From an uncultured Opitutia bacterium (GTDB lineage: Bacteria > Verrucomicrobiota > Verrucomicrobiia > Opitutales > Opitutaceae), in NCBI GenBank assembly GCA_903925425.1, contig CAIYFD010000030.1, positions 1-32,481 on the forward strand: a stretch of DNA of 32,481 bases, written 5' to 3'. The notes beneath the pieces were generated by a model. The model saw only the letters and a program-made list of their open reading frames with translations. It ran no database searches and had not been told where the DNA came from. How positions within the stretch are numbered: the first letter of the stretch is position 1; every line of letters starts with the position of its first letter. Made by a program: the position numbers and the translations under genes. Positions 32 to 14,133 of this stretch are shown here, in pieces.

Positions 32-958
32 ATGAGTAATTATCACCATGCAATCAATGCCGTGGTGCGTCGCACAGGGCTGACTGGCCATGTCATCCGA
101 GTTTGGGAGAAGCGTTACCGGGCAGTGGAGCCTGAGCGCACTGCGACCAACCGCCGGCTTTACTCTGATGAGCAGGTTGAGCGATTGGAATTACTGCGCG
201 ACGCCACCAAGGCTGGGCAGAGCATCGGCGTCGTGGCCAATCTGCCGACGGAGACGCTGCGGCAAATGGCGGCGGCGGCCCCATCGGCGGCAGGTCCGGG
301 CCGTCCGAGAACGTCTCGTCTGCCCGAGGACTCATCCTTGCTGGATGCGGCCCTTGCAGCCGTAAAAGCACTCGACGCCCGTGCTCTGGAGCAGGCCTTA
401 AGGCGAGCTGATGTGGCGCTCGGGACGCAGGGCATGCTGCAGCGAGTGGCCGCGCCGCTGGCTCAGGCTCTCGGAAGTCTCTGGCGCGATGGCACGATCA
501 CGGCGGCCCATGAACATTTCGCAACGGTCGTGCTGCGCAAGTACCTCACCTCCGCCGCGCAACCGTTTGCCGCGAGCGGGAACGACCCCGTGCTGATTGT
601 CGCCACTCCTCCCGGCCAATTACATGAACTCGGGGCGCTTCTCGCGGCGGCATCTGCGGCCAACCTTGGGTGGCAAGTGGTCTATTTGGGAGCGAGCCTG
701 CCGGCGCCGGAGATTGCCGGCGCGGCGCTGCAGCGCCGCGCCCGGGCTGTCGCCCTGAGCCTCGTGTATCCTGATGACGACATGCGCATGGAGGGTGAGC
801 TGATCCGTTTGCGCGAGTTGCTGCCCGCGGCCACCAGGTTGATTGTCGGGGGGAGGGCGGTCGTCGCCTACCGTCCGATCTTGGAGAAGATCGGCGCGCT
901 GCAGGCGCATGATCTCGACCAATTGCTCTCCGCCTTGGAAGCCTGCCACGCTGGATGA
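32..958 (+). CDS. MerR-family regulator with C-terminal cobalamin-binding domain (CarH/LitR-like)
   Basis: N-terminal MerR HTH (VVRRTGLTGHVIRVWEKRYRAVEPERTATNRRLYSDEQVERLELL); W-x9-EH signature (WRDGTITAAHEH); B12-binding-like Rossmann region PPGQLHELG...VVYLGASLP. Confidence 0.88.
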   Translation: MSNYHHAINAVVRRTGLTGHVIRVWEKRYRAVEPERTATNRRLYSDEQVERLELLRDATKAGQSIGVVANLPTETLRQMAAAAPSAAGPGRPRTSRLPEDSSLLDAALAAVKALDARALEQALRRADVALGTQGMLQRVAAPLAQALGSLWRDGTITAAHEHFATVVLRKYLTSAAQPFAASGNDPVLIVATPPGQLHELGALLAAASAANLGWQVVYLGASLPAPEIAGAALQRRARAVALSLVYPDDDMRMEGELIRLRELLPAATRLIVGGRAVVAYRPILEKIGALQAHDLDQLLSALEACHAG

Positions 959-1278: not shown

Positions 1279-3414
1279 TCACGGCTCCAACTCAAACCCG
1301 TGGTCGGCGGCGTAGGTGAGGACCGAGAGGCGCCCCTCCTTGGCTTCGACTTCACCGGCCCACGCCCGGGTCGGCGTGGCCGGGTCGGGCGTGGTGGCCA
1401 CGGCGACGCTGATCCGGTGAATCCCCGGGCTGAGCGGCACGCGGAGTTCACCGACGGACGCCCCGTCGGACTGCAGGCCCTTCGGTCGGTAGGTTTGCTC
1501 CTGGGTCTTTCCGTCGACCGCGACCCGCACCACGACCGGTGAGCGGGTCCGGTCCGCGGGCAGGGCGGTGCGCATGTGCACCGGGCGGGTGTCCAGCGCC
1601 GGATCGGGCAACGCCGCGGCCGCGCCGGCAAGCCACTCCCCGTTCACGTGGAAGCTGAACACGAATTCCGGCTCAAGGGTCGCGGGATTGCGGAACGGCG
1701 CGGCGCTGGCAAAGAGCAGCCCGGCGAGTGTCAGGGCGGTCAGTCCGGCGGCCATGGCCCACGCGGAAAGTCTCAGGCCGCGCCTGGCGGGCTTTTCGCT
1801 GACCGACTGCTGGCGGAGCTGATGGGCGGCGGCCGTGAGCAGTCCGGGGCGGAGCAGATCGAAGTTCACGTGCGCGACCTTGCGCGGGTCGGCGCGGTTG
1901 GGGCGGAAGGCGGGCTCGCGTGAGCCGGCGATCCGCTCGGGCATCCACCGGTTGCCTTCCTTGCAGAAAACCTCGGCGGAACCGCAGCCCACGATCAATA
2001 CGGCCGCGGCTCCTTTGCTGATGAGGCGCTCGATGAGCTTGGGCTCGATCCAGCCGGAACACGGGATGCGGTGCACGCTGTAGCCGGGAAGGCGCGTGGA
2101 CCAGGCCGCGGCGTTGAACAGTTCCCAGCCGCCGTCGGACTGGGCGCAGACAAAGGCGAGGGCGCGCGGGTGGCCTTGGGCCACCCCGGCGACGACGAAG
2201 GTTTCGAGTTCACGGATCAATTGCCGCGCGTCGAACCACGGCAAGCCGATGCCCTGCGTGTCGCAGGCGCCGGCGCATACGCCGCAGCCGATGCAGCGGT
2301 CGGGGTCGATCTGCGCCTGCGAGGGAAACGGTTTCCCGTCGGTGCGCGGCACCATCGTGATCGCGCCAAAAGGACAGTCGTGGGAGCAGAGCGTGCAGGA
2401 GAAACAGCGCGAGACATCCACCGTGGCCTGGAACACGGCCCGCGGCCGGCGCCGGGCCAGCCACCACGGCACGGTCATGAGTCCCATGAGCGCAAGCAGC
2501 CCCACCAGCCAGATGCCCCCGCCGGAGAGCCGTCCCGATACCGCCAGCGGCCAGAGGTACCACCAGTCGAGCGTGAAGGCCGCGGGCTTCACTGCCATCT
2601 GCGCGGCCGCCGCGTTGGTCGCGGGAAACACCAGCGCCGCGGCCACCACCGCGCTGGTCAGCCAGGCGGAAAGACGCCAGTCGGGCAGCAGTTTGACCAG
2701 ACTCAAGCGCGCGAGGTGCAGGCCAAGCCCGGCCGCGATCGCGAGGGGGAGCACCATGTGGAGGAAAAACACCACGAAGAAGAGCAGCGATGGCACCGTG
2801 CGGTCCGAGACGAACAGCCGCAGCATCGGTTCACCGAACACCGGCAGCACGTCCACCGCCCGGATGGTGTCGAGCGCGAGCACCTGCGCCCGCACATCCC
2901 AGACGAGCCAGTAACCGGTCCAGCCGATGAACCACACCAGCCCGAGCAGGGCCACGCCGCTGGTCCATGCCAGCCAGCGCGGTCCGGCGAACTTGCGCGC
3001 CACGAAGGTGCGCAGGGCATGGGCCAGCAGGAGCAGCATCAGCAGGTCCGAGGCGTAGCGGTGCACGCTGCGGATGAGTCCCCCGGGCGAGCGGGGTCCG
3101 AGATCGGCCAGTGAACTCCACGCCTGCCCCACGCTCGGCGAGTACCAGATCAGGACCGCCACGCCTGAGGCCACGGCGAGCAGCAGCAGCGCGTTCACGG
3201 CGGCGCCAAGCTGGGCGAACGGGTTCAGTTCCCGCGGCGCGCCGCGCTCCAGGACGAGATCGAACCGCGTGGCGAGCCGGTCGGCCGCGGCGAGCAGCGG
3301 CGCGAGGTGCGTCGGCGGGGGGGGCGGGTGCGCCCCCGGCGCCGCGGCGGCGAGGGGCAGCGCATCCGCCATTTCCTCGCAATCCAGGTCAGGATGGTGG
3401 TGGGACGACGGCAT
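1279..3414 (-). CDS. Fusion protein: diheme cytochrome b N-terminal domain, two [4Fe-4S] ferredoxin motifs, MvhD/hydrogenase iron-sulfur subunit-like domain, TM plus C-terminal extracytoplasmic domain
   Basis: Two HX13H pairs (HRYASDLLMLLLLAH; HMVLPLAIAAGLGLH); CFSCTLCSHDCP and CIGCGVCAGACD; MvhD-like block AFVCAQSDGGWEL...RIPCSGWIEPKLIERLISKGAAAVLIVGCGSAEVFC. Start chosen at internal Met (MPSSHHH, 3414); 3372 (MADAL) is an alternative. Confidence 0.85.
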   Translation of the reverse strand: MPSSHHHPDLDCEEMADALPLAAAAPGAHPPPPPTHLAPLLAAADRLATRFDLVLERGAPRELNPFAQLGAAVNALLLLAVASGVAVLIWYSPSVGQAWSSLADLGPRSPGGLIRSVHRYASDLLMLLLLAHALRTFVARKFAGPRWLAWTSGVALLGLVWFIGWTGYWLVWDVRAQVLALDTIRAVDVLPVFGEPMLRLFVSDRTVPSLLFFVVFFLHMVLPLAIAAGLGLHLARLSLVKLLPDWRLSAWLTSAVVAAALVFPATNAAAAQMAVKPAAFTLDWWYLWPLAVSGRLSGGGIWLVGLLALMGLMTVPWWLARRRPRAVFQATVDVSRCFSCTLCSHDCPFGAITMVPRTDGKPFPSQAQIDPDRCIGCGVCAGACDTQGIGLPWFDARQLIRELETFVVAGVAQGHPRALAFVCAQSDGGWELFNAAAWSTRLPGYSVHRIPCSGWIEPKLIERLISKGAAAVLIVGCGSAEVFCKEGNRWMPERIAGSREPAFRPNRADPRKVAHVNFDLLRPGLLTAAAHQLRQQSVSEKPARRGLRLSAWAMAAGLTALTLAGLLFASAAPFRNPATLEPEFVFSFHVNGEWLAGAAAALPDPALDTRPVHMRTALPADRTRSPVVVRVAVDGKTQEQTYRPKGLQSDGASVGELRVPLSPGIHRISVAVATTPDPATPTRAWAGEVEAKEGRLSVLTYAADHGFELEP

Positions 3415-4405
3415 CGGGTTCGTACAGCAGCGACTGGAGCGCGGCGCGCAGCCAGGCGCGGTGGCGCGGTTCGAGCGTGAAACGGTAGGCGATGTGATTC
3501 GCGCGGTCGACGAGCAGGAAGAGGTTCGCGTGCTCGATGCTGCCCGTCGCCGGGTTGCGCGTCGCCGCAAACTGCAGCCCGGACAGCAGCCCGTGCATTT
3601 CCGCGGTATCGTGGCCGTTGACGTAGCGGAACGCGGGGTAGGTGAAGCCGCGCATCTGCGTCACGGCGTCCATCAGCTCCGCGGTTTCATATTCCGGGCT
3701 GAGCGAAAGGGCCACGACGTCGAGACTGTCTCGATCGGCGGGCGGGAGCTCGTTGAGCAGCGCCTTCACCTCGAGCAGGATCTCCGGGCAGGCGGTGGTG
3801 CAGGCGGCGAAAACCCCGGTGACGAGCACCACCCGGCCGCGCAGGTCGGAAAAACGGAAGACGGTCCCCTTCTGGTCGAAGAGCGGCACGTCGGGCAGGT
3901 CCAACTGCACCCGGATGCGTTCCCCGGGGAAGGGCGGCAGCACGTCGGCGCGCGCCATCTCCAACCGGGCATAGCCGACGAGCCCGGTCGCGGTGCCAGC
4001 CGTCAGCAGCAGGCCGGTGCCAGCGGCCCGTGCGTGGTTGCGCCAGACGGATGGCGCAAGCAGCCGGGCGAACGCGCTCCGCCAGAACAGCGCAGCCACG
4101 CCGACGACAAAGACCGGCTCCAGCATCATCACCGAAACGGCCAGCCACGAGATGCCGCCGGTGCGGGGGTCGCCCTGATAGCACCAGCGTTGGAAGTCCC
4201 GCACGAATTCCCCCAGCCAGTTGCCCTGCGTGGGCCCGAAAATTGTCAGCAGCAGGAACCCCTCGTAACCCGCGAGGGCGGTGAGCAGGAACACCGGCAG
4301 TCCGGGCCCGAGAATCCAGCGCCCGGCCCCGCCGCCCTCACTTCCGGTGGGAGCGGGCGGGCCGGCACCGGCTGGCGGCAGGGTCGCGATGTCCGATGAA
4401 GCCAT
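3389..4405 (-). CDS. SCO1/SenC-like copper chaperone/thiol protein with N-terminal multi-TM domain
   Basis: CxxxC (FAACTTACPEI) and distal conserved His (IEHANLFLLVD) of SCO family; hydrophobic N-terminal about 150 aa. Confidence 0.82.
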   Translation of the reverse strand: MASSDIATLPPAGAGPPAPTGSEGGGAGRWILGPGLPVFLLTALAGYEGFLLLTIFGPTQGNWLGEFVRDFQRWCYQGDPRTGGISWLAVSVMMLEPVFVVGVAALFWRSAFARLLAPSVWRNHARAAGTGLLLTAGTATGLVGYARLEMARADVLPPFPGERIRVQLDLPDVPLFDQKGTVFRFSDLRGRVVLVTGVFAACTTACPEILLEVKALLNELPPADRDSLDVVALSLSPEYETAELMDAVTQMRGFTYPAFRYVNGHDTAEMHGLLSGLQFAATRNPATGSIEHANLFLLVDRANHIAYRFTLEPRHRAWLRAALQSLLYEPDAVVPPPS

Positions 4406-4426
4406 GGGAAAGCGCGCCCGGCCCGG

Positions 4427-6130
4427 TCAACGCACGGGCCAGACGTCGGCCAGGGCTTTCCAGTTGGCGAAGTAGTAGATCGCGAAGCAGGCGAGGAACA
4501 CGAGGGAGAGGGCCATCGTGCCCTTCGTGGCGTAGTGGTCGTGGGCGAGCGAGCCGGCCTGGCTGCCCGCGAGCGCCGGCGGCGTTCCCCAGTCGGTCAT
4601 CGCCCGGTCCTGGATCTTCGCACCGAAGAACAGCGTGCCGACGCAGAGCAGGGCGAAGATCAGCAGGCCGGTGAAGGCCAGCACGCCGCCGATCCCGAGC
4701 ACGCCCAACCAGAGGTGCGCCGCCGGGCCGTACACGCCCTGCGCGTCGATGTCCCAGCTGCGGCGGGAGACGCCCATCGAGCCGGCGAACGACATGCCGA
4801 GCGAAAGCATCGTGATGCCGCCGCCGAAGATCCACGGCTGCGCCCGCGCCCAGCCGCGGCCGATGAAGTCGCGCTGGAAGATCAGCGGCACCACATAGTA
4901 CGCGAGGCCCATGAAAGCCAGGGTCGTGCCGCCGACGACGGTCACGTGGAAGTGGCCGGGGATGCGGAGCGTGTTGTGTGCGATGATGTTGATCTGCTGC
5001 GTGCCGAGCGTGACACCGGTGATGCCGCCGAGGAACCCGAAGATCACGACCGAGAGGACGGTGGCGGAGAACGCGGGGTTGCGCCACGGCAGGGCGGTGA
5101 CCCAGCCGAAGATCCCGCTGGTGTAGCCCTTCTCGCGCATGGCGATCTCGACGCCGGCCGGAACGGTGAAGCCGTGGATCATCGAGGCCAGCACCGCGAG
5201 GTACATCGCGTAGGAGGTGTTCCAGATCTTCCAGGTCGCGCCAACGCCCGGGTCGACGAGGAGGTGGTGGGCGGAGGCGAGGTTGATGAAAAGGATGTAG
5301 AGCACGAAGGCTGTGCGGCAGACCGCCTCGTTGATCGGGCGGGCGCCGAGCACGATGTGGGAGAGGAGGTACCAGACGGAGACCATCGCGCAGACGTTGA
5401 CCTGCTGCGACTGGTGGCCGAGGCCCCACCAGATCAGGCGGTACCACTCGGGGTCGGGCTGGGAGGTCCAGCCCATGGAGTAGGTGAACGTCGGGATCAT
5501 CACGATCGCGCCGTGGAGCAGGGTGACGACCGCGATGATCGCGGCGGCCGTGGCGCCGAAGGTCACGATCGGCACTGAGCCCGTGTAGGCCCCGTCGCGC
5601 TTGGCGACGTAGAGCGTGGCGAAGAAGTTGAACACGCCGATGAGGGTGCCAACCGCCACGAGGATGATGCCGAGGTAGAAGCCGGGATGCGCGAGCAGCG
5701 GCAGGTACGAGGTCATCATCACATCCGCCTTTCCGCCGATGATGACGGTGTCGGTCATGACGGCCCCGACGAGCATCATGAGGAACGAAACCCAGGCGAT
5801 CTTGCGGGAGTAGAGCCGGGCGTTGAGCGGCGTGGTGCAGGCGAAGTAGAGGATCGCGATCTCGAAGAACAGGATCCAGAAGATCAGCATGTTCAGCCCG
5901 TGAAAGGTGAGGATGCGGTAGAACCATTCCGCGGGCAGCAGGTGGACGGTTTGCCAGCGCGTCAGCGCGAGCCCCAGGGCGGCGATGCCGCCGAGAAGGA
6001 GGAAGACGATGCCGACGACGGCGTTGAGCTTGATGAAGCGCTGGGCGTCGAGGCAGACGTGCAGGCCGGTCGTGCCGCAGACCCGCCCGGGGGTGCCGGG
6101 GGCCGCGAGATTGTGGGAGGAGGAAGCCAT
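4427..6130 (-). CDS. Heme-copper oxidase superfamily subunit I, B-family-like, lacking the catalytic Tyr motif; candidate NO reductase (CuA-type) large subunit
   Basis: Helix II TFHGLNMLIFW; helix VI WGLGHQSQQVN; helix VII ASAHHLLVDPG; helix X HNTLRIPGHFHVTVVGG. Confidence 0.85.
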   Translation of the reverse strand: MASSSHNLAAPGTPGRVCGTTGLHVCLDAQRFIKLNAVVGIVFLLLGGIAALGLALTRWQTVHLLPAEWFYRILTFHGLNMLIFWILFFEIAILYFACTTPLNARLYSRKIAWVSFLMMLVGAVMTDTVIIGGKADVMMTSYLPLLAHPGFYLGIILVAVGTLIGVFNFFATLYVAKRDGAYTGSVPIVTFGATAAAIIAVVTLLHGAIVMIPTFTYSMGWTSQPDPEWYRLIWWGLGHQSQQVNVCAMVSVWYLLSHIVLGARPINEAVCRTAFVLYILFINLASAHHLLVDPGVGATWKIWNTSYAMYLAVLASMIHGFTVPAGVEIAMREKGYTSGIFGWVTALPWRNPAFSATVLSVVIFGFLGGITGVTLGTQQINIIAHNTLRIPGHFHVTVVGGTTLAFMGLAYYVVPLIFQRDFIGRGWARAQPWIFGGGITMLSLGMSFAGSMGVSRRSWDIDAQGVYGPAAHLWLGVLGIGGVLAFTGLLIFALLCVGTLFFGAKIQDRAMTDWGTPPALAGSQAGSLAHDHYATKGTMALSLVFLACFAIYYFANWKALADVWPVR

Positions 6131-6144
6131 GGCGGGAGGGAGGG

Positions 6145-6699
6145 TTATTCGACGAAGATTTTTCCGGACATCAGGTGGTGGCCCATGCCGCAGAATTCAT
6201 TGCAGACGATGGTGAACTCGCCGCGGGAGGTCGGGGTGATGGTGAGGACGTGGTCGTACCCCGGGATCACCTGGAAGTTCATGTTCAGCGGCTGGAGCGA
6301 AAAGCCGTGCTGGAGATCGAGGGACGAGAGGTGGAGCCGGTAGGTCTCGCCCACGTGCAGACGCAGGGCGGGGTACCACTGCCACATCCGGGCGACGAGG
6401 TAGGCGTCACCGCCGGGCGCAGGCTCGACGAGGGGCAGCTCGGTCAGCAGCGGGTTGTTGGACGCCTGGTTTTTCCAGGTGCCGACACGGTTGGACTTCA
6501 CGAATGCCTCGGCGCGGGCGAGGTAGGCGACAGGGGCGACGGTGTACGCTTCACCGGTGCTGTTCTGCTTCCCGCGGAAATGCCAGTACGGCATCATCAG
6601 CGACATCACGAAGCACCAGAGGAGGGCGCAACCGAGCCAGATCTTTTCGTGGCCGGCCGGACCGTGGAACCAAGGGGAGGTGAGGGGGCGAAGGCTCAT
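6145..6699 (-). CDS. Cytochrome c oxidase subunit II-like protein with intact CuA site
   Basis: CuA motif CNEFCGMGHHLM (CxxxCxxxHxxM), single N-terminal TM, PLNMNFQVIPGYDHVLTITPTSRGEF. Confidence 0.9.
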   Translation of the reverse strand: MSLRPLTSPWFHGPAGHEKIWLGCALLWCFVMSLMMPYWHFRGKQNSTGEAYTVAPVAYLARAEAFVKSNRVGTWKNQASNNPLLTELPLVEPAPGGDAYLVARMWQWYPALRLHVGETYRLHLSSLDLQHGFSLQPLNMNFQVIPGYDHVLTITPTSRGEFTIVCNEFCGMGHHLMSGKIFVE

Positions 6700-6712
6700 G
6701 GGGAAACGGGGT

Positions 6713-6862
6713 TCACGGCAGCAAGTCGGGTTTGGTGAGCGCGAGTTCGACCCAGCCCCAGACCGTGTAGGAGAGGAACGGGATCACGACGCCGAGGACC
6801 AGGAGCAGCCACGGGTTATCGAGCAACTTTTGCCAGGGGTGCGTTTTGGGTTTTTGGTTCAT
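6713..6862 (-). CDS. Small single-TM protein (49 aa), candidate small subunit of the heme-copper complex
   Basis: Not in the supplied ORF track. ATG at 6862, TGA at 6713: MNQKPKTHPWQKLLDNPWLLLVLGVVIPFLSYTVWGWVELALTKPDLLP. 13-bp gap to subunit II; overlaps the 3' end of the upstream gene by 47 bp. Confidence 0.7.
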   Translation of the reverse strand: MNQKPKTHPWQKLLDNPWLLLVLGVVIPFLSYTVWGWVELALTKPDLLP

Positions 6863-8270
6863 GGGAGATGGAGGACGCCGGGCGGGAGGCGCGGCGCCAC
6901 GCGCCGGCCTGCCGCAGCATGACCGCGAGGAAAAAGAGCCCGCCGGCGACAGCCACGACGCCGCCCAGGCCCATCACGCTCAGCCCGAGATACTCGCCGA
7001 GGGAGCGGACGTTCTGCTCCGAACCATATTGCTTGCGGCCTAGCCCGTAGGCGCCGGCGAGAGAGAACCCGAGGCCGAAGACCGCCTGGCCGCCGCCGAA
7101 GAGCAGGAGCTGCAGCCGCGCCCGGCGGGTGGATGTCGGGGCGGATCCCGCCGGGCTGACGGCCGGCATGAAGTCGTAGGCGGCAGTCATCAGCGCGAGC
7201 GTCACTGCGCCGATCGCGCAATGGTAGTGCCCCGGCACCAGCGTGCTGGATCCGCGGATCAGTGCGCCGAGGAGGAAGCCGAGCATGGTCAGCGCCGCGC
7301 TCCCGGCCAGCCCGGCGCAGCGGTAGTCGCGCCCGTCGAGTTCGGACCGCCGCCGCCAGAGGTGACGGGCGATGGCGGCCAGCGCCACGAGCGTCACCGG
7401 GAAGATGGTCCAGCGCATCAGGAGCGTGGCCATGGAGAAGTAGGCGCTGTGCGTGGTGCCCTCGAGCGCGAGCGGAAGCAGCACCAGTTCTGGCAGGACG
7501 AGAGCCAGCATCAGCGCCGTCACGACACCTGGCCCCAGCGCGACTTGGCCGGTCCAGCGGTGGACGAGGTGGAGCCAGAGCCCGAGCATGGCGGCGACAT
7601 TCGCCGCCTGCAGCACGTGGCCGCCGCCCCAGAAGACGAGTTCGTAGTAGGCGATCGCCGGGGCGTCCGGCGTGGTGCGCCAGGCGGCGGCGAAGGTGAA
7701 GATGGCGATGACGTTGGCGGCGGCGGCGGCGCGCAGGGCGGCGACGGTGCCGGGGTTCAGGGCCTGGGCGTCGGTTCGCGCCGGGGTGGCGAGGGCGAGC
7801 AGGCAGAAGAGCGCGACGCCCGTGAACCAGCAGACCAGTCCGAGAAAAAACACCGGATGGTCGATCACCGGCACGTAATTGGAGAGCACCGGCTCGGCGC
7901 CGGGCATCACGGCGCCCACGAGCAGGCCGATGACACCGGTGGCGGCGAGCCCGAAGGCGGCGGCCGCGGGGAGGCGAGGCAGCCGCGGCCCGAGCGCGAG
8001 AGCGAGAAAGGCGAGGGCGCCGGCCTGAAACCAGACGACGATCGCGAGGTCCACGTGCACCACGAGGGCGCGCCGGAAAAAGAGCGGATCGGTGAAGAGC
8101 CAGCCGAGGAACGGCAGGCGCCCGATGACGAGCGTCAGCGAGAGAAGCCCCGCGAGCACCAGGCTTCCAAGCGCGAGGCCGAACCAACGGCGGGCCTCCG
8201 TTTCGCCAGCGCACCCGGCGGCCCGGGAGGTCGTCGGAACGGACAGCGTGATGGGCGTGGCGGGCGACAT
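6816..8270 (-). CDS. Second heme-copper oxidase superfamily core-subunit-like membrane protein (divergent, NOR/cbb3-like)
   Basis: RRALVVHVDLAIVVWF (helix II His), FWGGGHVLQAAN (helix VI), GTTHSAYF (helix VII, single His), VPGHYHCAIGAVTLALM (helix X His-x-His). Start MSPATPIT (8270) preferred over ORF-track 8309 because of the promoter model. Confidence 0.78.
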   Translation of the reverse strand: MSPATPITLSVPTTSRAAGCAGETEARRWFGLALGSLVLAGLLSLTLVIGRLPFLGWLFTDPLFFRRALVVHVDLAIVVWFQAGALAFLALALGPRLPRLPAAAAFGLAATGVIGLLVGAVMPGAEPVLSNYVPVIDHPVFFLGLVCWFTGVALFCLLALATPARTDAQALNPGTVAALRAAAAANVIAIFTFAAAWRTTPDAPAIAYYELVFWGGGHVLQAANVAAMLGLWLHLVHRWTGQVALGPGVVTALMLALVLPELVLLPLALEGTTHSAYFSMATLLMRWTIFPVTLVALAAIARHLWRRRSELDGRDYRCAGLAGSAALTMLGFLLGALIRGSSTLVPGHYHCAIGAVTLALMTAAYDFMPAVSPAGSAPTSTRRARLQLLLFGGGQAVFGLGFSLAGAYGLGRKQYGSEQNVRSLGEYLGLSVMGLGGVVAVAGGLFFLAVMLRQAGAWRRASRPASSISHEPKTQNAPLAKVAR

Positions 8271-8277
8271 GGGGTAA

Positions 8278-8299
8278 ACGGGCGTGGTTATACGCCCGT
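8278..8299. repeat. Perfect 8-bp inverted repeat ACGGGCGT-GGTTAT-ACGCCCGT over the predicted -10/TSS
   Basis: Read directly. Confidence 0.7.
8287..8292 (-). promoter_or_regulatory. -10-like hexamer TATAAC
   Basis: Centre lies 32 bp from the centre of the FNR/DNR box at 8315-8328, the class II activator spacing. Confidence 0.6.
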
Positions 8300-8314
8300 C
8301 CGCCGCCATCCGCC

Positions 8315-8328
8315 TTGACGCCGGTCAA
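8315..8328 (-). promoter_or_regulatory. FNR/DNR-type box TTGAC-N4-GTCAA
   Basis: Perfect arms; embedded in a 22-bp sequence (8310-8331) identical to 15711-15732. Confidence 0.82.
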
Positions 8329-8372
8329 GCCCCGCGCAGATCGCGTCCGCGCCGCATCAACCCGGGGCCGGT

Positions 8373-8792
8373 TTACTGGTCCTTGGCTCGCCCTTTCCTC
8401 GGTAAGGGAGCCTCGGCCGCGCGGCGGGAACGCCGGTCCTGCGGGAGCGGCGTGTCCGGTCCGAGGCAAAGCCGGGCGAACCGCTCCACCCGGCGGGTGG
8501 ACACCCGGAGGCGGAACTGCCCCCTGAGCCAGCCGCTGTTGACCGGGTTCAGGAGGTAATCGCTGATCTCCTCCCGGAACTGCTGCGGGGAGGTGGCGTT
8601 GGCGAGGCCGTGGATCAGCTCGCGGTCCGCTTTGAAGTGTCCCGGCCGCAGAATCATCAGGAACGGAGCGAGCGGGACGGCGTGAGGGTACAGTCCCTTC
8701 CAAAACAAGCGGCGTTCGGCCCGTTTCCTCGCGGCGGCGTATACTTCGCCGATCGTTTCCCCCTCTCTGTCACCGAAAGGTTCCGCGCTCAT
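8373..8792 (-). CDS. Uncharacterised protein (139 aa) immediately downstream of nrdJ
   Basis: ORF starting MSAEPFGDREGETIGEVYAAARKRAERRLFWKGLYPHAVPLAPF; 10-bp gap after nrdJ stop. Confidence 0.6.
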   Translation of the reverse strand: MSAEPFGDREGETIGEVYAAARKRAERRLFWKGLYPHAVPLAPFLMILRPGHFKADRELIHGLANATSPQQFREEISDYLLNPVNSGWLRGQFRLRVSTRRVERFARLCLGPDTPLPQDRRSRRAAEAPLPRKGRAKDQ

Positions 8793-8802
8793 GGGCGCCA
8801 CC

Positions 8803-11307
8803 CTAGATGATTTCGCACGCTCCGCCAGCACAAGCCACGGTGTCCTTGAGCTTGGTTTCGTCCGTCTCCTCGCGGAGCACGACGTAGTCCACCGGCTGGT
8901 ATTTCAACCGGTTCCACCTGGCCGCGTCCTCCTCGCCGGCGACAGCTTCGCGCGGGGCCTGAGCGTAGCGCTTGTCGCCGTCGTGGCCGAGCAGCGCGAT
9001 GCCGGTGAAGCTGCCGCGGTTCTGCCAGATGAAATCAGACACGGCCTTCCACTCGTCGGCCCGCACGGTGCAGGTGTTGGACACATTGTGGTGCAGGCCG
9101 GGCGAGGGGGAGTCGGGCGCCTCGCCGTTCAGCACCCAGTGCTGCTGCACGAGGCGGACATACTGCAGGAAACGCACGGCGCTGAGGTCCTCGCGCAGGA
9201 TGGCCTGCGGCGGGGCCTCGACCGGAAAGGTGATGACATCATCGGTCTCCGGCCGGTAGACGCTGGCCTCGGTGAGGTGCGCGTTGGGGGCGCGGAAGTG
9301 CTGATAGACGGGGTCCCGCCGGCTGGCCTGCACGCGGCGGAAATAGTGTCGGGCGTGGTGCGGATGGATGCCCGAGGCGGCGTCGAGCAGCAGCGAGGCC
9401 GTGCCTTCGGGCTTCACGCACGTCACGCGGGCCGCGGGTCGGATGCCGATCGCGCCCGCGACGAGCTGGTTGACGGCGCGGCAGAGGCGGGCGCCGCGCC
9501 GGAGCACGGCGGGGTCGAGCAGGATCGCCGGGTTGTCCATGATGCCGCAGATCGAGACCCCGAGGAGGGCGTCGCGCTCGTTGAGGAAGCGCGTGACCGG
9601 CCCGAGGTAGGGCATGTCGGTGTACGCGGCCTGCAGGGTGCCGATGACGGAGGCCTGCACGCACGCGGCCAGGAAGTCGTCGGCGGAGCGGAGCGCCGAG
9701 CCGTTGATCGTGGACAGATTGCACATCTGCCAGCCCGAGAGCCGGGTGCCGGGGGACAGGTCGCCGGTGTAGCCGAGCGCGTGAAGCCGGGTGGTGTCGG
9801 CTTCGCTCAGCGGGGCCGTGAGGACCGGATGCAGCCCGATTTCACAGCAAGGGTTGCAACCGTGGTCGGGGTGGTCGGCGAAATAGAAACCGGGCTCGCC
9901 GAACTCCTGCTGGGCCTTGAAGAGCCGGCGGAAGAGGATGTCGTCGGGCAGGCTGCGCAGCAGCACGGCGGAATTGTTCGAGGCGGAGCGCTGGGGATGC
10001 GTCCCGAACCAGTTGCCGGTCTTGGCGTCCATCATCTCGGCGTCATCCGGCGAGAAGAGACAGATCGTGGCGGAGCGGCGCACGCCGCCACTGAGCACAC
10101 CGCGGGCGGTGAACATGCAGATGTCGTACACCTCGATCGGACGCAGGCGCCGGCCGGCGGCGCCGCGCAGGACGCCGTCCACTTCCTGGAGGGCCTGCTT
10201 GAGCGGCAGATGGCCGGGGGCGCGGCCGCCGGAGGTGACGAGCGGGCTGCCGCGCGGGCGGATCGCGGAGAAGTTGAATTCCACCTTGTGCCCCTCGAGG
10301 TGGCTGCGGATCAGGGTGTCGAGCGAATCGGCCCAGCCCTCGATGGTGTCTGTCACGGCATGGTGCCGCACCGGCAGGTCGATCTCGGCCGGCCGCGGCG
10401 GCAGCGCCGGCAGCAGGGCCACGTGCTCGCGCTGCACGGAAAAGCCGCAGCCGGTGCCGGCGAGGAGCAGGAAGAAGTATTCGCGGAAGAACTCGACCCG
10501 GTCCGCCGGGCTGAAGGCGCAGTTGAAGAGTCGGGCGTGGTTGCGGAGCACGGCGTCGCCCCCGAATTGCAGGGAACGCATGGACGGTAGTACGCGCTTT
10601 TCCGCCACCGCCGCGAAGGCGGCGTGCAGGAGATCGCCGATCGGCACGCCGACGACGGTCCGGGCGAGCAGGAGCCGGTCGGCCGGGTCGGCGGGCGTGG
10701 CGGCCGGGTCCCCGGTGGGCACCAGCGCCAGCCGGTCGCGGAAGTATGCGCGGTGCATCGCCTCGACGCGGCCGACCGCCTCGGGGAAGAGCTCGCGGCG
10801 ACCGAGGTCGGCCCGGAAGCGGGCGTACTTCGCGCAGGCGATGTACTCGGCCAGGCCGTTCGCCGGGTGTCGGGTCAGGCGGGCCGCCGCCTGGCGCTCG
10901 CGGTAGATGATGTAGCTGCGGGCGACCTCCCATTCGCCCTCGGCGGCGATGGCCTTCTCCACGGTGTCCTGGATCTGCTCGATCGTCGGCTCCCGGTCCG
11001 TGCGGTAAAAGAGCTCCAGCATGCGCTCCACACGCCCCGTGATGGCGAGCGCCTTGAGGAAGGTGTTCAGGTCCACGCCCCAGCGCGCGGCCGCATCGTC
11101 GCGCTGCGGGTTGGCCGCGCCCCCGGTTTGCACGTCATGGAAGGCGAGGGCGACCGCGCGCGTGACCTTCGACGGGTCCCACGCCATGCGGGAGCCGTCG
11201 CGTTTGACCACTCCGTGCGGGGCTTCCGGGCTGCCGGAGTCATGGGCGGGCGGGAGGGAGAGGCGGTGGGGCGTGCGGGTGGTGAGAAGCGGAAGCGTGG
11301 AGAGCAT
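8803..11307 (-). CDS. nrdJ: Adenosylcobalamin-dependent (class II) ribonucleoside-diphosphate reductase with N-terminal ATP-cone-like segment
   Basis: VVKRDGSRMAWDPSKVTRAVALAF; RSATICLFSPDDAEMMDAK; NLSTINGSA; CVKPEGTASLLLDAASGIHPHHARHYFRRVQ; C-terminal ACAGGACEII redox Cys pair. Confidence 0.92.
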   Translation of the reverse strand: MLSTLPLLTTRTPHRLSLPPAHDSGSPEAPHGVVKRDGSRMAWDPSKVTRAVALAFHDVQTGGAANPQRDDAAARWGVDLNTFLKALAITGRVERMLELFYRTDREPTIEQIQDTVEKAIAAEGEWEVARSYIIYRERQAAARLTRHPANGLAEYIACAKYARFRADLGRRELFPEAVGRVEAMHRAYFRDRLALVPTGDPAATPADPADRLLLARTVVGVPIGDLLHAAFAAVAEKRVLPSMRSLQFGGDAVLRNHARLFNCAFSPADRVEFFREYFFLLLAGTGCGFSVQREHVALLPALPPRPAEIDLPVRHHAVTDTIEGWADSLDTLIRSHLEGHKVEFNFSAIRPRGSPLVTSGGRAPGHLPLKQALQEVDGVLRGAAGRRLRPIEVYDICMFTARGVLSGGVRRSATICLFSPDDAEMMDAKTGNWFGTHPQRSASNNSAVLLRSLPDDILFRRLFKAQQEFGEPGFYFADHPDHGCNPCCEIGLHPVLTAPLSEADTTRLHALGYTGDLSPGTRLSGWQMCNLSTINGSALRSADDFLAACVQASVIGTLQAAYTDMPYLGPVTRFLNERDALLGVSICGIMDNPAILLDPAVLRRGARLCRAVNQLVAGAIGIRPAARVTCVKPEGTASLLLDAASGIHPHHARHYFRRVQASRRDPVYQHFRAPNAHLTEASVYRPETDDVITFPVEAPPQAILREDLSAVRFLQYVRLVQQHWVLNGEAPDSPSPGLHHNVSNTCTVRADEWKAVSDFIWQNRGSFTGIALLGHDGDKRYAQAPREAVAGEEDAARWNRLKYQPVDYVVLREETDETKLKDTVACAGGACEII

Positions 11308-11683: not shown

Positions 11684-12394
11684 GTGCCCCTCGATACGAC
11701 CGCGCTGCGCCAGACCGCCATCGGGGCGACGCTCCGTTCGTGCCAGCTTTTTTCCGGGCTGCCCTCGGCCGATGTCGACGCCATCGCTTCTTTTGCGCTG
11801 CTCCGCACCGTGGGGAAGGACGCGTACCTGTTCCGCGAGGGTTCGCCCTCCGAGGGCTTTTACCTCGTGCAGCAGGGTGCAATCAACGTCCACCGGGTCA
11901 GTCCGGCCGGCAAGGAGCAGGTGATTCATGTCTTCCGGCCCGGCGAGACGTTCGCGGAGGCGGCGCTGGCCGGGGACCGCGGCTACCCGGCCGATGCGCG
12001 GGCGGTGGAGTCCTCGACCGTGGTGGTTTTGCCGAAGGGGCCGTTCCTCGCGCTGCTGCGCAATCGCCCCGATCTGGCCATCCGCATGTTGGGTTCGATG
12101 AGCACCCATCTGCGGGTCGTGGTGGGCCTGGTGGACGACCTGACCCTCAAGGATGTCGAAACCCGTTTCCTCAACTGGCTGCTCAAGCATCGCCGTCCCG
12201 GCAGCGTGGCGGTCGAGCTCGGCAGGACCAAGCGCGTACTGGCCGCGGAACTGGGGACCAGCAGCGAAACCCTGTCGCGCACGTTCGCGCGCCTGCGCGA
12301 CGCCGGGCTCGTGGATATCCGCGGATCGACCGTGCGGCTGAAGGACTCCACTGGCATCGAGACGCGTTTCCGGCGCCTGCTGGGCGAAGCGTAA
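11684..12394 (+). CDS. Crp/Fnr-family transcriptional regulator, DNR/NnrR-like (no Fe-S cysteine cluster), GTG start
   Basis: cNMP-like fold LLRTVGKDAYLFREGSPSEGFYLVQQGAINVHRVSPAGKEQVIHVFRPGETFAEAAL; HTH KRVLAAELGTSSETLSRTFARLRDAGLV; only one Cys in the protein. Confidence 0.9.
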   Translation: MPLDTTALRQTAIGATLRSCQLFSGLPSADVDAIASFALLRTVGKDAYLFREGSPSEGFYLVQQGAINVHRVSPAGKEQVIHVFRPGETFAEAALAGDRGYPADARAVESSTVVVLPKGPFLALLRNRPDLAIRMLGSMSTHLRVVVGLVDDLTLKDVETRFLNWLLKHRRPGSVAVELGRTKRVLAAELGTSSETLSRTFARLRDAGLVDIRGSTVRLKDSTGIETRFRRLLGEA

Positions 12395-12477: not shown

Positions 12478-13971
12478 TCAGGTAACCCGTCCTGCCTCGA
12501 CTCCCATGAATCGCAGCACGTCTGCGGCGGAGTAGCTTTCGCGGCCCGGAGCAAGGAAACGCCGGGCGTCAACGATGTCCTCGCCGGCGGTGACGATCGC
12601 CGGTTCGGTCGCGCCTTCCGCCCGGGTCTGGCCGAGGCCGATGGCGGCCAGCAGGCCGTTGCAGAGGCATTTCCTTCCGACCGTTTCCGCCGGATCGCCG
12701 CCCTTGCGGATAAAATCGGCCTCCGGCTCGGCCGGACAGCGATAACCGACGGTGCCGTCTTCGCGCTGGTAGGGCTGGCGCAGGTAGCCGAGGTCGCAGG
12801 TGCGTGCCCGTTGCCCGTAAATCGCGGGATCGGCCACGGTGTCCTCAAGGCGCACGACCTTGAAGGGCATGCCGGTCGGCGAGGCACGGGAGTCCGTCAG
12901 CAAGTCCACGGTGCCGGCCGCGCTGTGGCCAAGGGCGGAGCGTTTCAGTGCGGCCGTGAGGCCGGACTCGTCGCAAAGCGCGAAGGCGGTGCCGATCTGG
13001 ACGCCGGTGGCACCGAGCGCGAGCGCGTCGCGCAGCTTCCCGGGGTGGGCGTACGATCCGGCGAGCCAGAACGGCAGGCCAAGGGCGCGAATGGCTGCGA
13101 GATCGGCGTTGTCGCGCGGGCCGTAAACCGGCTCACCCCGGGCGTTCCATTGCGCGGTCCCGCGCGGGGGCGCGTTGTGCCCGCCTGCGGCGATCCCCTC
13201 GACCACGAAGCCATCGACGCGGCCGGACGACTTGCGGGCGAGGGTCAGCGCGAGCGTGGATGACGACACGATCGCGAGGAAGCGCGGCCGGGCGAGGTTC
13301 GCGGGCGGCGGCAGAAAAGCCGCAGGGTCGAGCGTGAGTGTGTGCTCCTGGCCGGGCCCGGCTCCTTCGACGGCGAGGCGCAGGCTGACCGGCTGGCCCG
13401 CCGCGAGGCCGTCGAGCACGCCCGGGATGGCCCGGGGGATGCCCGCGCCCATGAGGACGAAATCAACCCCGGCCAGCATGGCGCCAAACAAGGAGGGGAG
13501 GGTGGGAAGCTGGATCTTCTCGAGCAGATTGATGCCGACCACACCGCCATGGCCCTCCTTGGCGAGGAACACCTCGGTGAAGTTGGCGACGATCGTGAGC
13601 TCGGCGAGTTCGCGCGTTGAGTCGAGCGCGGGCAACGGCGTGAGTCGGTGGGGTTGGCCCGGCGGACGTCCGCCCTCGATCCAATAAGAAGTGAGGATCC
13701 GGTCCGCCGCCGCGCGCAGCGGACATTGGGCGAGCGCCCGCCGCATGGCGCCATCCGCATCACCGTCCTGCAGCCGGCGGACGAGCACCGAGGCCAAGGC
13801 CGTGCCCGAGACGACGCCGAGCTGGCCGGCCTGCGAGACGGAGCGGGCGAGTTTCCAGTGGGAGACTGCGATCCCCATGCCGCCCTGGATGATCAATGGA
13901 AGGGGCAGGGGCAGTTCGGGATTTGGTCTCACGGGGGAGGATGACGCCGCGCGCGGCGTCAAAGTTGACAT
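12478..13971 (-). CDS. Nitronate monooxygenase / 2-nitropropane dioxygenase-like family protein
   Basis: LIIQGGMGIAVSHWKLARSVSQAGQLGVVSGTALA; GFVVEGIAAGGHNAPPRG; LALGATGVQIGTAFALCDESG; start at internal Met MSTLTPRA. Confidence 0.85.
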   Translation of the reverse strand: MSTLTPRAASSSPVRPNPELPLPLPLIIQGGMGIAVSHWKLARSVSQAGQLGVVSGTALASVLVRRLQDGDADGAMRRALAQCPLRAAADRILTSYWIEGGRPPGQPHRLTPLPALDSTRELAELTIVANFTEVFLAKEGHGGVVGINLLEKIQLPTLPSLFGAMLAGVDFVLMGAGIPRAIPGVLDGLAAGQPVSLRLAVEGAGPGQEHTLTLDPAAFLPPPANLARPRFLAIVSSSTLALTLARKSSGRVDGFVVEGIAAGGHNAPPRGTAQWNARGEPVYGPRDNADLAAIRALGLPFWLAGSYAHPGKLRDALALGATGVQIGTAFALCDESGLTAALKRSALGHSAAGTVDLLTDSRASPTGMPFKVVRLEDTVADPAIYGQRARTCDLGYLRQPYQREDGTVGYRCPAEPEADFIRKGGDPAETVGRKCLCNGLLAAIGLGQTRAEGATEPAIVTAGEDIVDARRFLAPGRESYSAADVLRFMGVEAGRVT

Positions 13972-14133
13972 AGGCGGCCCTCCGGTTGCGGGCAATGCCG
14001 GTGCTGGTCGCTGACGCGGGTATTCCGGCACGGAAAGAGTGTATGTCTGGTGCTTCTCGTCCACCCGGTCAGGGAGTCACCCTTGAGTCGCGGGCCGGAA
14101 ATTTCGGTCGGTACGAAAAGCGGGTGGCAATAT

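What the first reader, a model, noticed from the sequence alone, without database searches (positions are those of the whole stretch)
1279..8331. Operon encoding two heme-copper-oxidase-superfamily core subunits plus CuA, small TM, SCO and a cytochrome b-ferredoxin-MvhD fusion
Six tightly spaced minus-strand genes (8270 to 1279) follow one FNR/DNR-type box. Seen directly: two distinct proteins with heme-copper helix signatures, one CuA subunit II, one SCO protein and one b-heme/[4Fe-4S] fusion. Known: CuA-containing NO reductases (for example CuANOR of Bacillus azotoformans) and several non-canonical NOR families (eNOR, sNOR, gNOR) exist in this superfamily. Inference: this encodes an NO reductase-like complex of unusual composition, possibly with two different catalytic or regulatory core subunits and a dedicated electron-input module. 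I do not know of a described complex with this full gene set.
Basis: partly seen in the sequence, partly recalled or inferred. Interest (0 to 1): 0.82.

Follow-up and report, generated by a model that had tools for sequence, protein, structure and literature searches.

The report
eNOR-type NO reductase with copper-less twin
A conserved, FNR/DNR-box-marked six-gene operon in Opitutaceae bacteria encodes a probable nitric-oxide reductase of the little-studied eNOR type, together with a second oxidase-like protein that has lost its copper site but kept its heme ligands and a membrane electron-input protein, neither of which I could find described as part of such an enzyme.

Summary
Six minus-strand genes (A, small TM, B, C, D, E; 8270-1279, gaps -47 to +21 nt) follow a perfect TTGAC-N4-GTCAA box (8328-8315). 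C is the catalytic core: it keeps the heme/CuB histidines, but the cross-linking Tyr of O2 reductases is an invariant Gln, the published diagnostic of eNOR (sNOR and CuANOR have Asn, gNOR Asp). B is a CuA subunit, D a SCO chaperone. A has the same fold as C (pLDDT 90.5; profile match E 1e-29) and keeps four heme-associated histidines, but lost the helix-VII His-His of CuB and the proton-path residues. So there is one catalytic core and one CuB-less twin, not two enzymes. E fuses a two-heme cytochrome b, two [4Fe-4S] clusters, an FlpD-like and a periplasmic domain. E occurs in exactly the 9 of 390 phylum genomes that carry C; A in 8 of those 9. The order is kept in Verrucomicrobiota and a Spirochaetia MAG, rearranged in Burkholderiales. 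38 of 41 A loci carry the box (0.025 expected). A DNR-like regulator and NirK often lie nearby. I found no described complex of this composition, but the main eNOR paper was not readable here. NO reduction itself is inferred.

The parts
8315..8328 (.). FNR/DNR-type box TTGACCGGCGTCAA, about 45 nt upstream of the start of A
   Evidence: conserved in 38 of 41 orthologous loci against 0.025 expected
6816..8270 (-). A: CuB-less paralog of the heme-copper core subunit (484 aa, 12 TM)
   Evidence: COX1 Pfam hit over cut-off; AlphaFold model pLDDT 90.5, HCO fold; His/Arg/Lys conservation and loss of the CuB pair
6715..6862 (-). small single-TM subunit (49 aa), overlaps the 3' end of A; positional analogue of CbaC
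   Evidence: conserved in 41 loci; a 46-aa peptide probably co-purified with Bacillus CuANOR (PMC3475470)
6145..6699 (-). B: CuA subunit II (184 aa)
   Evidence: CuA ligands H131, C166, C170, H174, M177 invariant
4427..6130 (-). C: catalytic heme-copper subunit, eNOR-type (567 aa)
   Evidence: Gln243 in place of the cross-linking Tyr; H239, H288, H289, H385, H393, H395 invariant
3389..4405 (-). D: membrane-anchored SCO/SenC copper chaperone
   Evidence: CxxxC (C202, C206) and H292 invariant
1279..3414 (-). E: two-heme cytochrome b6-like domain + 2x[4Fe-4S] + FlpD/MvhD-like domain + C-terminal TM and periplasmic domain (711 aa)
   Evidence: His118/132/219/233 and eight Cys invariant
11684..12394 (+). 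Crp/Fnr regulator, best solved relative DNR (NO-responsive denitrification regulator); candidate ligand of the box
   Evidence: a homolog flanks the cassette in about 15 other loci

Best explanation
The operon encodes a periplasm-facing NO reductase of the eNOR type. B (CuA) receives electrons and passes them to the low-spin heme and then the high-spin heme/CuB site of C, where two NO are reduced to N2O; Gln243 replaces the O2-reductase tyrosine. D delivers copper to CuA and CuB. The small TM protein is a structural subunit. E is a bc-type, quinone-reactive membrane protein that probably brings electrons into the complex, from quinol and/or a cytoplasmic Fe-S donor. A is a duplicated core subunit that lost CuB and the proton path and now serves as a non-catalytic, heme-binding partner of C, as an electron relay toward E or as an NO-binding/assembly subunit. 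A DNR/FNR-type regulator switches the operon on when NirK makes NO. Shown: genes, ligands, folds, co-occurrence, box. Inferred: NO as substrate, electron route, role of A, complex formation.
For: C has the heme/CuB His set plus Gln at the cross-link Tyr position, which PMC8756737 uses to define eNOR. Tree: C with the Defluviimonas, Thermomicrobium and Thermus homologs and G074, apart from true ba3 oxidases. Relatives sit beside NO-linked genes: Rrf2 and DUF542 in Thermus, hemerythrin in Defluviimonas. NirK is above cut-off in 8 of 9 cassette genomes against 6 of 20 other Opitutaceae, p 0.005, and within the fetched locus in about a dozen loci. The own genome has NirK but no cNOR/qNOR recognised among its five COX1 proteins. 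Box 38/41 and a DNR-like regulator. A: same fold, sister to C on a long stem, CuB and proton-path residues lost, helix VI and X His and Arg-Lys kept in 38/38, H72 in 37/37 with a residue there. E in the same 9/390 genomes as C; A in 8/9, none without C.
Against: No activity, spectra or complex has been measured. Some B-family enzymes reduce both O2 and NO, and the function of a related divergent enzyme (sNOR) is disputed (PMC6967387). No eNOR reference sequence by name was available, so membership rests on the diagnostic residue and on relatives from published eNOR taxa. Cysteines of E's FlpD-like domain are not conserved, so that domain may not carry a cluster. The genome has other quinol:acceptor candidates (a bc-type cytochrome b and NrfD-family proteins), so E need not be the electron donor. 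A is absent from G074, and no A homolog is seen beside the Defluviimonas, Thermus and Thermomicrobium cores, so it is not needed for eNOR catalysis as such.
Confidence: 0.72

Rival explanations
1. C is a high-affinity O2 reductase (or a dual O2/NO enzyme) of the ba3 lineage, induced under low oxygen, and the operon is a microaerobic oxidase.
For: C is closest among solved structures to ba3 oxidase; the FNR-type box also fits low O2; a similar view was argued for Nitrosomonas sNOR.
Against: The cross-linking Tyr is replaced by Gln in all 30 C sequences while true ba3 oxidases in the same tree keep it. The genome already has aa3 and cbb3 oxidases. NirK linkage, a DNR-like regulator and no recognised cNOR/qNOR point to NO.
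Confidence: 0.15
2. A is a heme-based NO sensor or NO-buffering subunit: its high-spin heme has an open distal pocket without CuB, binds NO and gates or signals to C rather than relaying electrons.
For: Heme ligands kept but CuB, Tyr/Gln and proton path lost; A is the first gene behind the box in Verrucomicrobiota.
Against: No sensor or output domain; A is membrane-embedded and strictly tied to the structural genes; the helix-VI His could ligate the second heme and close the pocket.
Confidence: 0.3
3. A is a degenerate pseudoenzyme kept only as an assembly or dimerisation scaffold.
For: Long branch (3.17 changes per site); catalytic and proton residues lost.
Against: The heme-associated His, the propionate-type Arg-Lys, E210 and M285 are invariant across several phyla, which a mere scaffold would not need.
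Confidence: 0.2
4. E runs in the other direction: it passes electrons from cytoplasmic ferredoxin/Hdr-type donors to the quinone pool and has no direct link to NO reduction.
For: 2x[4Fe-4S] and FlpD-like domains resemble HdrA2/MvhD.
Against: E is found in exactly the genomes with C; no Hdr or hydrogenase genes seen in the operon; FlpD cysteines are lost in several members.
Confidence: 0.25

Closest known systems
eNOR (NO reductase family in the B-family branch of the heme-copper superfamily; Hemp & Gennis; characterised member from Rhodothermus marinus, from memory; family features from PMC8756737)
   Same: C: His ligands, Gln in place of the cross-linking Tyr, CuA subunit II; relatives in Thermus/Chloroflexi/Proteobacteria as published for eNOR; NirK linkage as in Ardenticatena (PMC4653789).
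   Different: Published eNOR is described as a two-subunit enzyme (PMC8756737); here a CuB-less core paralog (A) and the cyt b/Fe-S module (E) belong to the same operon.
CuANOR/bNOR of Bacillus azotoformans (PMC3475470)
   Same: CuA subunit II, ~46-aa TM peptide, SenC/SCO gene, B-family-like core.
   Different: Active-site Asn instead of Gln; a ~6-TM CbaD gene, no second HCO core and no cyt b/Fe-S protein reported in the cluster.
sNOR (norSY-senC-orf1 of ammonia oxidisers; PMC4940428, PMC6967387)
   Same: CuA + core + SenC cluster.
   Different: Active-site Asn; four-gene cluster; homology of orf1 to A could not be tested.
Thermus thermophilus ba3 oxidase (CbaAB)
   Same: Fold and ligand set of C; fold of A.
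   Different: Keeps Tyr237; reduces O2; no A- or E-like partner.
Cytochrome b6/bc1 cytochrome b with HdrA2/MvhD-type Fe-S domains
   Same: E: two His pairs 14 residues apart, (L/M)DWW motif resembling PEWY, ferredoxin domain.
   Different: No Rieske or cytochrome c1 gene in the operon; fused Fe-S/FlpD domains and a periplasmic beta domain.

Membership tests
eNOR | Gln in place of the active-site cross-linking Tyr in subunit I | tested here: met
   Gln243, invariant in 30 sequences; criterion from PMC8756737
eNOR | complete heme/CuB histidine set | tested here: met
   H239, H288, H289, H385, H393, H395 invariant, H77 at least 90%
eNOR | cupredoxin (CuA) subunit II encoded next to it | tested here: met
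   B; ligands invariant
eNOR | one predicted proton channel | tested here: inconclusive
   invariant Y254, S316, H319, T322 at ba3 K-path positions by sequence alignment only
eNOR | grouping with named eNOR reference sequences in a tree | not testable with these tools
   no named eNOR references held; proxies from Thermus, Thermomicrobium and Defluviimonas group with C
eNOR | NO reductase activity | not testable with these tools
   needs enzymology
sNOR / CuANOR (bNOR) | Asn at the cross-link Tyr position | tested here: not met
   Gln, not Asn, at that position
gNOR | Asp at the cross-link Tyr position | tested here: not met
   Gln
cNOR / qNOR | Glu at the active-site position | tested here: not met
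   Gln in C; criterion in PMC8756737
B-family O2 reductase (ba3) | cross-linked Tyr after the helix-VI His | tested here: not met
   HQSQQ instead of HPxVY
catalytic heme-copper oxidase (for A) | helix-VII His-His CuB ligands | tested here: not met
   Leu/Val/Ile/Phe/Ala and Ala/Thr/Tyr/Ser in their place in all aligned A sequences
cytochrome bc complex (for E) | two-heme cytochrome b with two His pairs | tested here: met
   H118/H132 and H219/H233 invariant, cytochrome b fold
cytochrome bc complex (for E) | Rieske protein and cytochrome c1/f partner in the operon | tested here: not met
   operon contains only A, small TM, B, C, D, E

The most novel reading that the evidence does not exclude
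A and C form a hetero-oligomer of two heme-copper cores, one catalytic and one CuB-less di-heme electron relay, which with E makes a self-contained quinol (or Fe-S donor):NO oxidoreductase, so that an eNOR draws electrons directly from the membrane pool through E and A instead of through soluble cytochrome c.
Probability: 0.3. Interest if true: 0.8.

Novelty: new variant of a known kind. Interest (0 to 1): 0.62.

Why it matters
eNORs are thinly characterised sources of the greenhouse gas N2O that annotation usually mislabels as cytochrome oxidases. In this genome (92.9% complete) the core found here is the only NO reductase recognised, in an organism with NirK, so it could be scored as lacking nor by standard tools. 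A conserved heme-copper paralog that lost CuB but kept its heme ligands, always beside a catalytic core, is a natural test of what the superfamily fold can do without its copper. The strict pairing of C with E points to a built-in electron-input route for this NOR class that can be tested directly.

Tried and rejected
1) sNOR was my first assignment of C (by gene content: CuA, core, SenC). It was dropped because the diagnostic residue is Gln, not Asn. 2) 'Two catalytic cores' was dropped after the ligand count in A. 3) A as an unrelated 12-TM protein: rejected; Pfam COX1 hit, profile comparison and fold search all give heme-copper core, although HMMER against the PDB finds nothing even with the profile. 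4) NosZ in the own genome: only the CuA-like part of B and the NirK region ring, far below cut-off. 5) Searching plasmids for A gave no match; for E only the Defluviimonas operon. 7) The PNAS 2024 eNOR paper is not in the library, so prior mention of A- or E-like genes there cannot be excluded. 8) Sigma-70 promoter scan found nothing; terminator-like hits are near chance.

Full report
Setting. The window lies in a 2.93-Mb draft genome (377 contigs, 92.9% complete) whose nearest named relatives at this locus are Opitutaceae MAGs (Verrucomicrobiota). Six genes run on the minus strand: A 6816-8270, small TM 6715-6862, B 6145-6699, C 4427-6130, D 3389-4405, E 1279-3414. Gaps are between -47 and +21 nt, as expected of one operon; transcription was not tested. 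The sigma-70 consensus scan is silent.

Gene identities. Pfam gives COX1 for A (44.7 bits, cut-off 34.8) and C (210.9 bits), COX2 for B, SCO1-SenC for D, and cytochrome b + Fer4 + FlpD for E. NCBIfam has no family for A and nothing above cut-off for C, so standard annotation would miss or misname this enzyme. B keeps all CuA ligands and D the CxxxC + His of SCO proteins across the alignments. The 49-aa TM protein is conserved in 41 loci. A 46-aa peptide encoded in a comparable position probably formed part of the purified Bacillus CuANOR (PMC3475470).

C is the catalytic core and is eNOR-like. It matches ba3 oxidase (2qpd, E 2.7e-44). The alignment puts C's Gln243 on ba3's Tyr237 (HPIVY against HQSQQ). 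Across 30 C sequences the six histidines 239, 288, 289, 385, 393 and 395 and Gln242, Gln243 and Asn245 are invariant, and His77 is at least 90%. PMC8756737 defines eNOR by Gln at exactly this position, against Tyr in O2 reductases, Asn in sNOR and CuANOR, Asp in gNOR and Glu in cNOR/qNOR. The next relatives, from a Defluviimonas plasmid (51%), Thermomicrobium roseum (46%) and Thermus thermophilus plasmids (44%), share the motif; true B-family oxidases in the same search keep HxxVY. The tree separates the two groups. Neighbours of those relatives are NO-linked: Rrf2 and DUF542 in Thermus, hemerythrin in Defluviimonas. Residues at the ba3 K-path positions (Y254, S316, H319, T322) are invariant in C, consistent with, but not proof of, the single proton channel predicted for eNOR.

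A is a CuB-less twin. AlphaFold gives a 12-TM-type helical bundle at pLDDT 90.5, pTM 0.89. Foldseek's best hits are all heme-copper cores (caa3 TM 0.74, ba3 0.69). Profile-profile comparison with C gives 99.8%, E 1.3e-29. In 38 A sequences, H218 (helix VI), H348 and H350 (helix X), E210, M285 and the propionate-type R412-K413 are invariant, and H72 (helix II) is present in every sequence with a residue there. Where C has the helix-VII His-His pair, A has Leu/Phe/Val/Ala/Ile followed by Ala/Ser/Thr/Tyr; where C has its Gln and proton-path residues, A has small or hydrophobic residues. A should therefore bind two hemes but not CuB, and should have no such proton path. In the tree A is one fully supported clade, sister to the C group rather than to ba3, on a long stem, and its branching broadly follows that of C across Verrucomicrobiota, Spirochaetia and Burkholderiales. 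That fits an old duplication of the NOR core followed by joint inheritance.

E is an electron-input module. It has the two His pairs of cytochrome b (118/132, 219/233), eight invariant Cys for two [4Fe-4S] clusters, and a conserved (L/M)DWW stretch resembling the PEWY quinol-site motif (the resemblance is my reading). The model matches cytochrome b of bc complexes and the profile matches cytochrome b6 and HdrA/FwdF ferredoxin domains. The Cys of the FlpD/MvhD-like part are not conserved in several members, so that part may no longer hold a cluster. The C-terminal periplasmic domain is a separate gene in Defluviimonas (E 1.4e-11), an additional sign that the pieces work together.

Co-conservation. 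In 390 phylum genomes, C (E at or below 1e-60) and E occur in the same 9 and A in 8 of them, never without C (Fisher p 7e-16 for A with C, ignoring relatedness). G074, with C and E but no A, shows that A is a later addition or was lost. Among 43 loci the order A-B-C-D-E on one strand is kept wherever the contig reaches far enough, in Opitutaceae, Pedosphaera-like MAGs, one Spirochaetia MAG and one unclassified MAG. Burkholderiales have a rearranged set with cyoE inside. A cyoE-like gene lies divergently upstream in many Verrucomicrobiota loci, which hints at heme o but was not pursued.

Regulation and context. The box TTGACCGGCGTCAA (8328-8315) sits about 45 nt before the likely start of A. 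An exact TTGAY-N4-RTCAA is found upstream of A in 38 of 41 loci, against 0.025 expected and 4.3% of ordinary 300-nt stretches in the same loci. The Crp/Fnr gene at 11684-12394 is closest among solved proteins to DNR and has homologs beside the cassette in about 15 other loci. The genome has a NirK with a fused cytochrome c domain, no NosZ above cut-off, and no recognised cNOR or qNOR among its five COX1 proteins (aa3, cbb3, C, A, and a CcoN-like protein). NirK is over cut-off in 8 of 9 cassette genomes against 6 of 20 other genomes of the family (p 0.005, small and not corrected for relatedness), and shares the fetched locus in about a dozen loci. PMC4653789 reports eNOR in an operon with NirK in Ardenticatena.

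Mechanism. Best supported: NO made by NirK activates a DNR-type regulator, which turns on the operon. C with B and the small TM subunit reduces NO to N2O at heme/CuB; D loads copper. E, a quinone-reactive protein with Fe-S clusters, feeds electrons. A, a two-heme protein without CuB, joins the complex as relay, NO-binding or assembly subunit. The parts list, ligands and co-inheritance are shown; substrate, electron route and A's role are inferred. The main rival for C is a low-oxygen oxidase; I give it 0.15.

Novelty. The core is a new member of a known but thinly studied family. The CuB-less twin and the strictly paired cyt b/Fe-S protein make this a new variant. I found no description of either as part of a NOR, but the central eNOR paper (PNAS 2024) is not in the library, so this remains to be checked there.

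Noticed in passing
G000:C132:11410-12642 (L004; protein P0001): A CcoN-like protein (467 aa, COX1 111 bits) appears to lack the helix-VI CuB histidine; similar-length COX1 proteins (about 470-570 aa) occur in many Opitutaceae, and an NrfD-family gene lies 3 kb away on the same contig. Possibly another non-catalytic heme-copper paralog.
   Followed up: partly
L067:8983-10668 and L068:6016-7698 (Thermus thermophilus plasmids): In these eNOR-like cores the second helix-X histidine, ligand of the low-spin heme, reads Lys (GHFK instead of GHFH).
   Followed up: no
window 8803-11307 (-) and 8373-8831 (-): A divergent B12-dependent ribonucleotide reductase lies just upstream; homologs lie near the cassette in several relatives (L022, L024, L030, L050). 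The 152-aa ORF between it and A has no family.
   Followed up: partly
window 32-958 (+): MerR-type regulator with a B12-binding domain (CarH-like) just downstream of the operon.
   Followed up: no
window 12478-14064 (-): Nitronate monooxygenase-like protein; a homolog lies directly beside the cassette in L023/L039 and L050/L060.
   Followed up: no
L117:3522-5138 (-): The genome's NirK carries a C-terminal cytochrome c domain (motif CFACH).
   Followed up: no
G277:C1:407415-409528 (L127, L131): E is broken into two overlapping frames in this single-contig genome: a sequencing error or a real frameshift.
   Followed up: no
G100:C1:690039-691103 (L115): A weak COX1-like protein (460 aa) in a genome without C, not matched by A; identity not worked out.
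   Followed up: no
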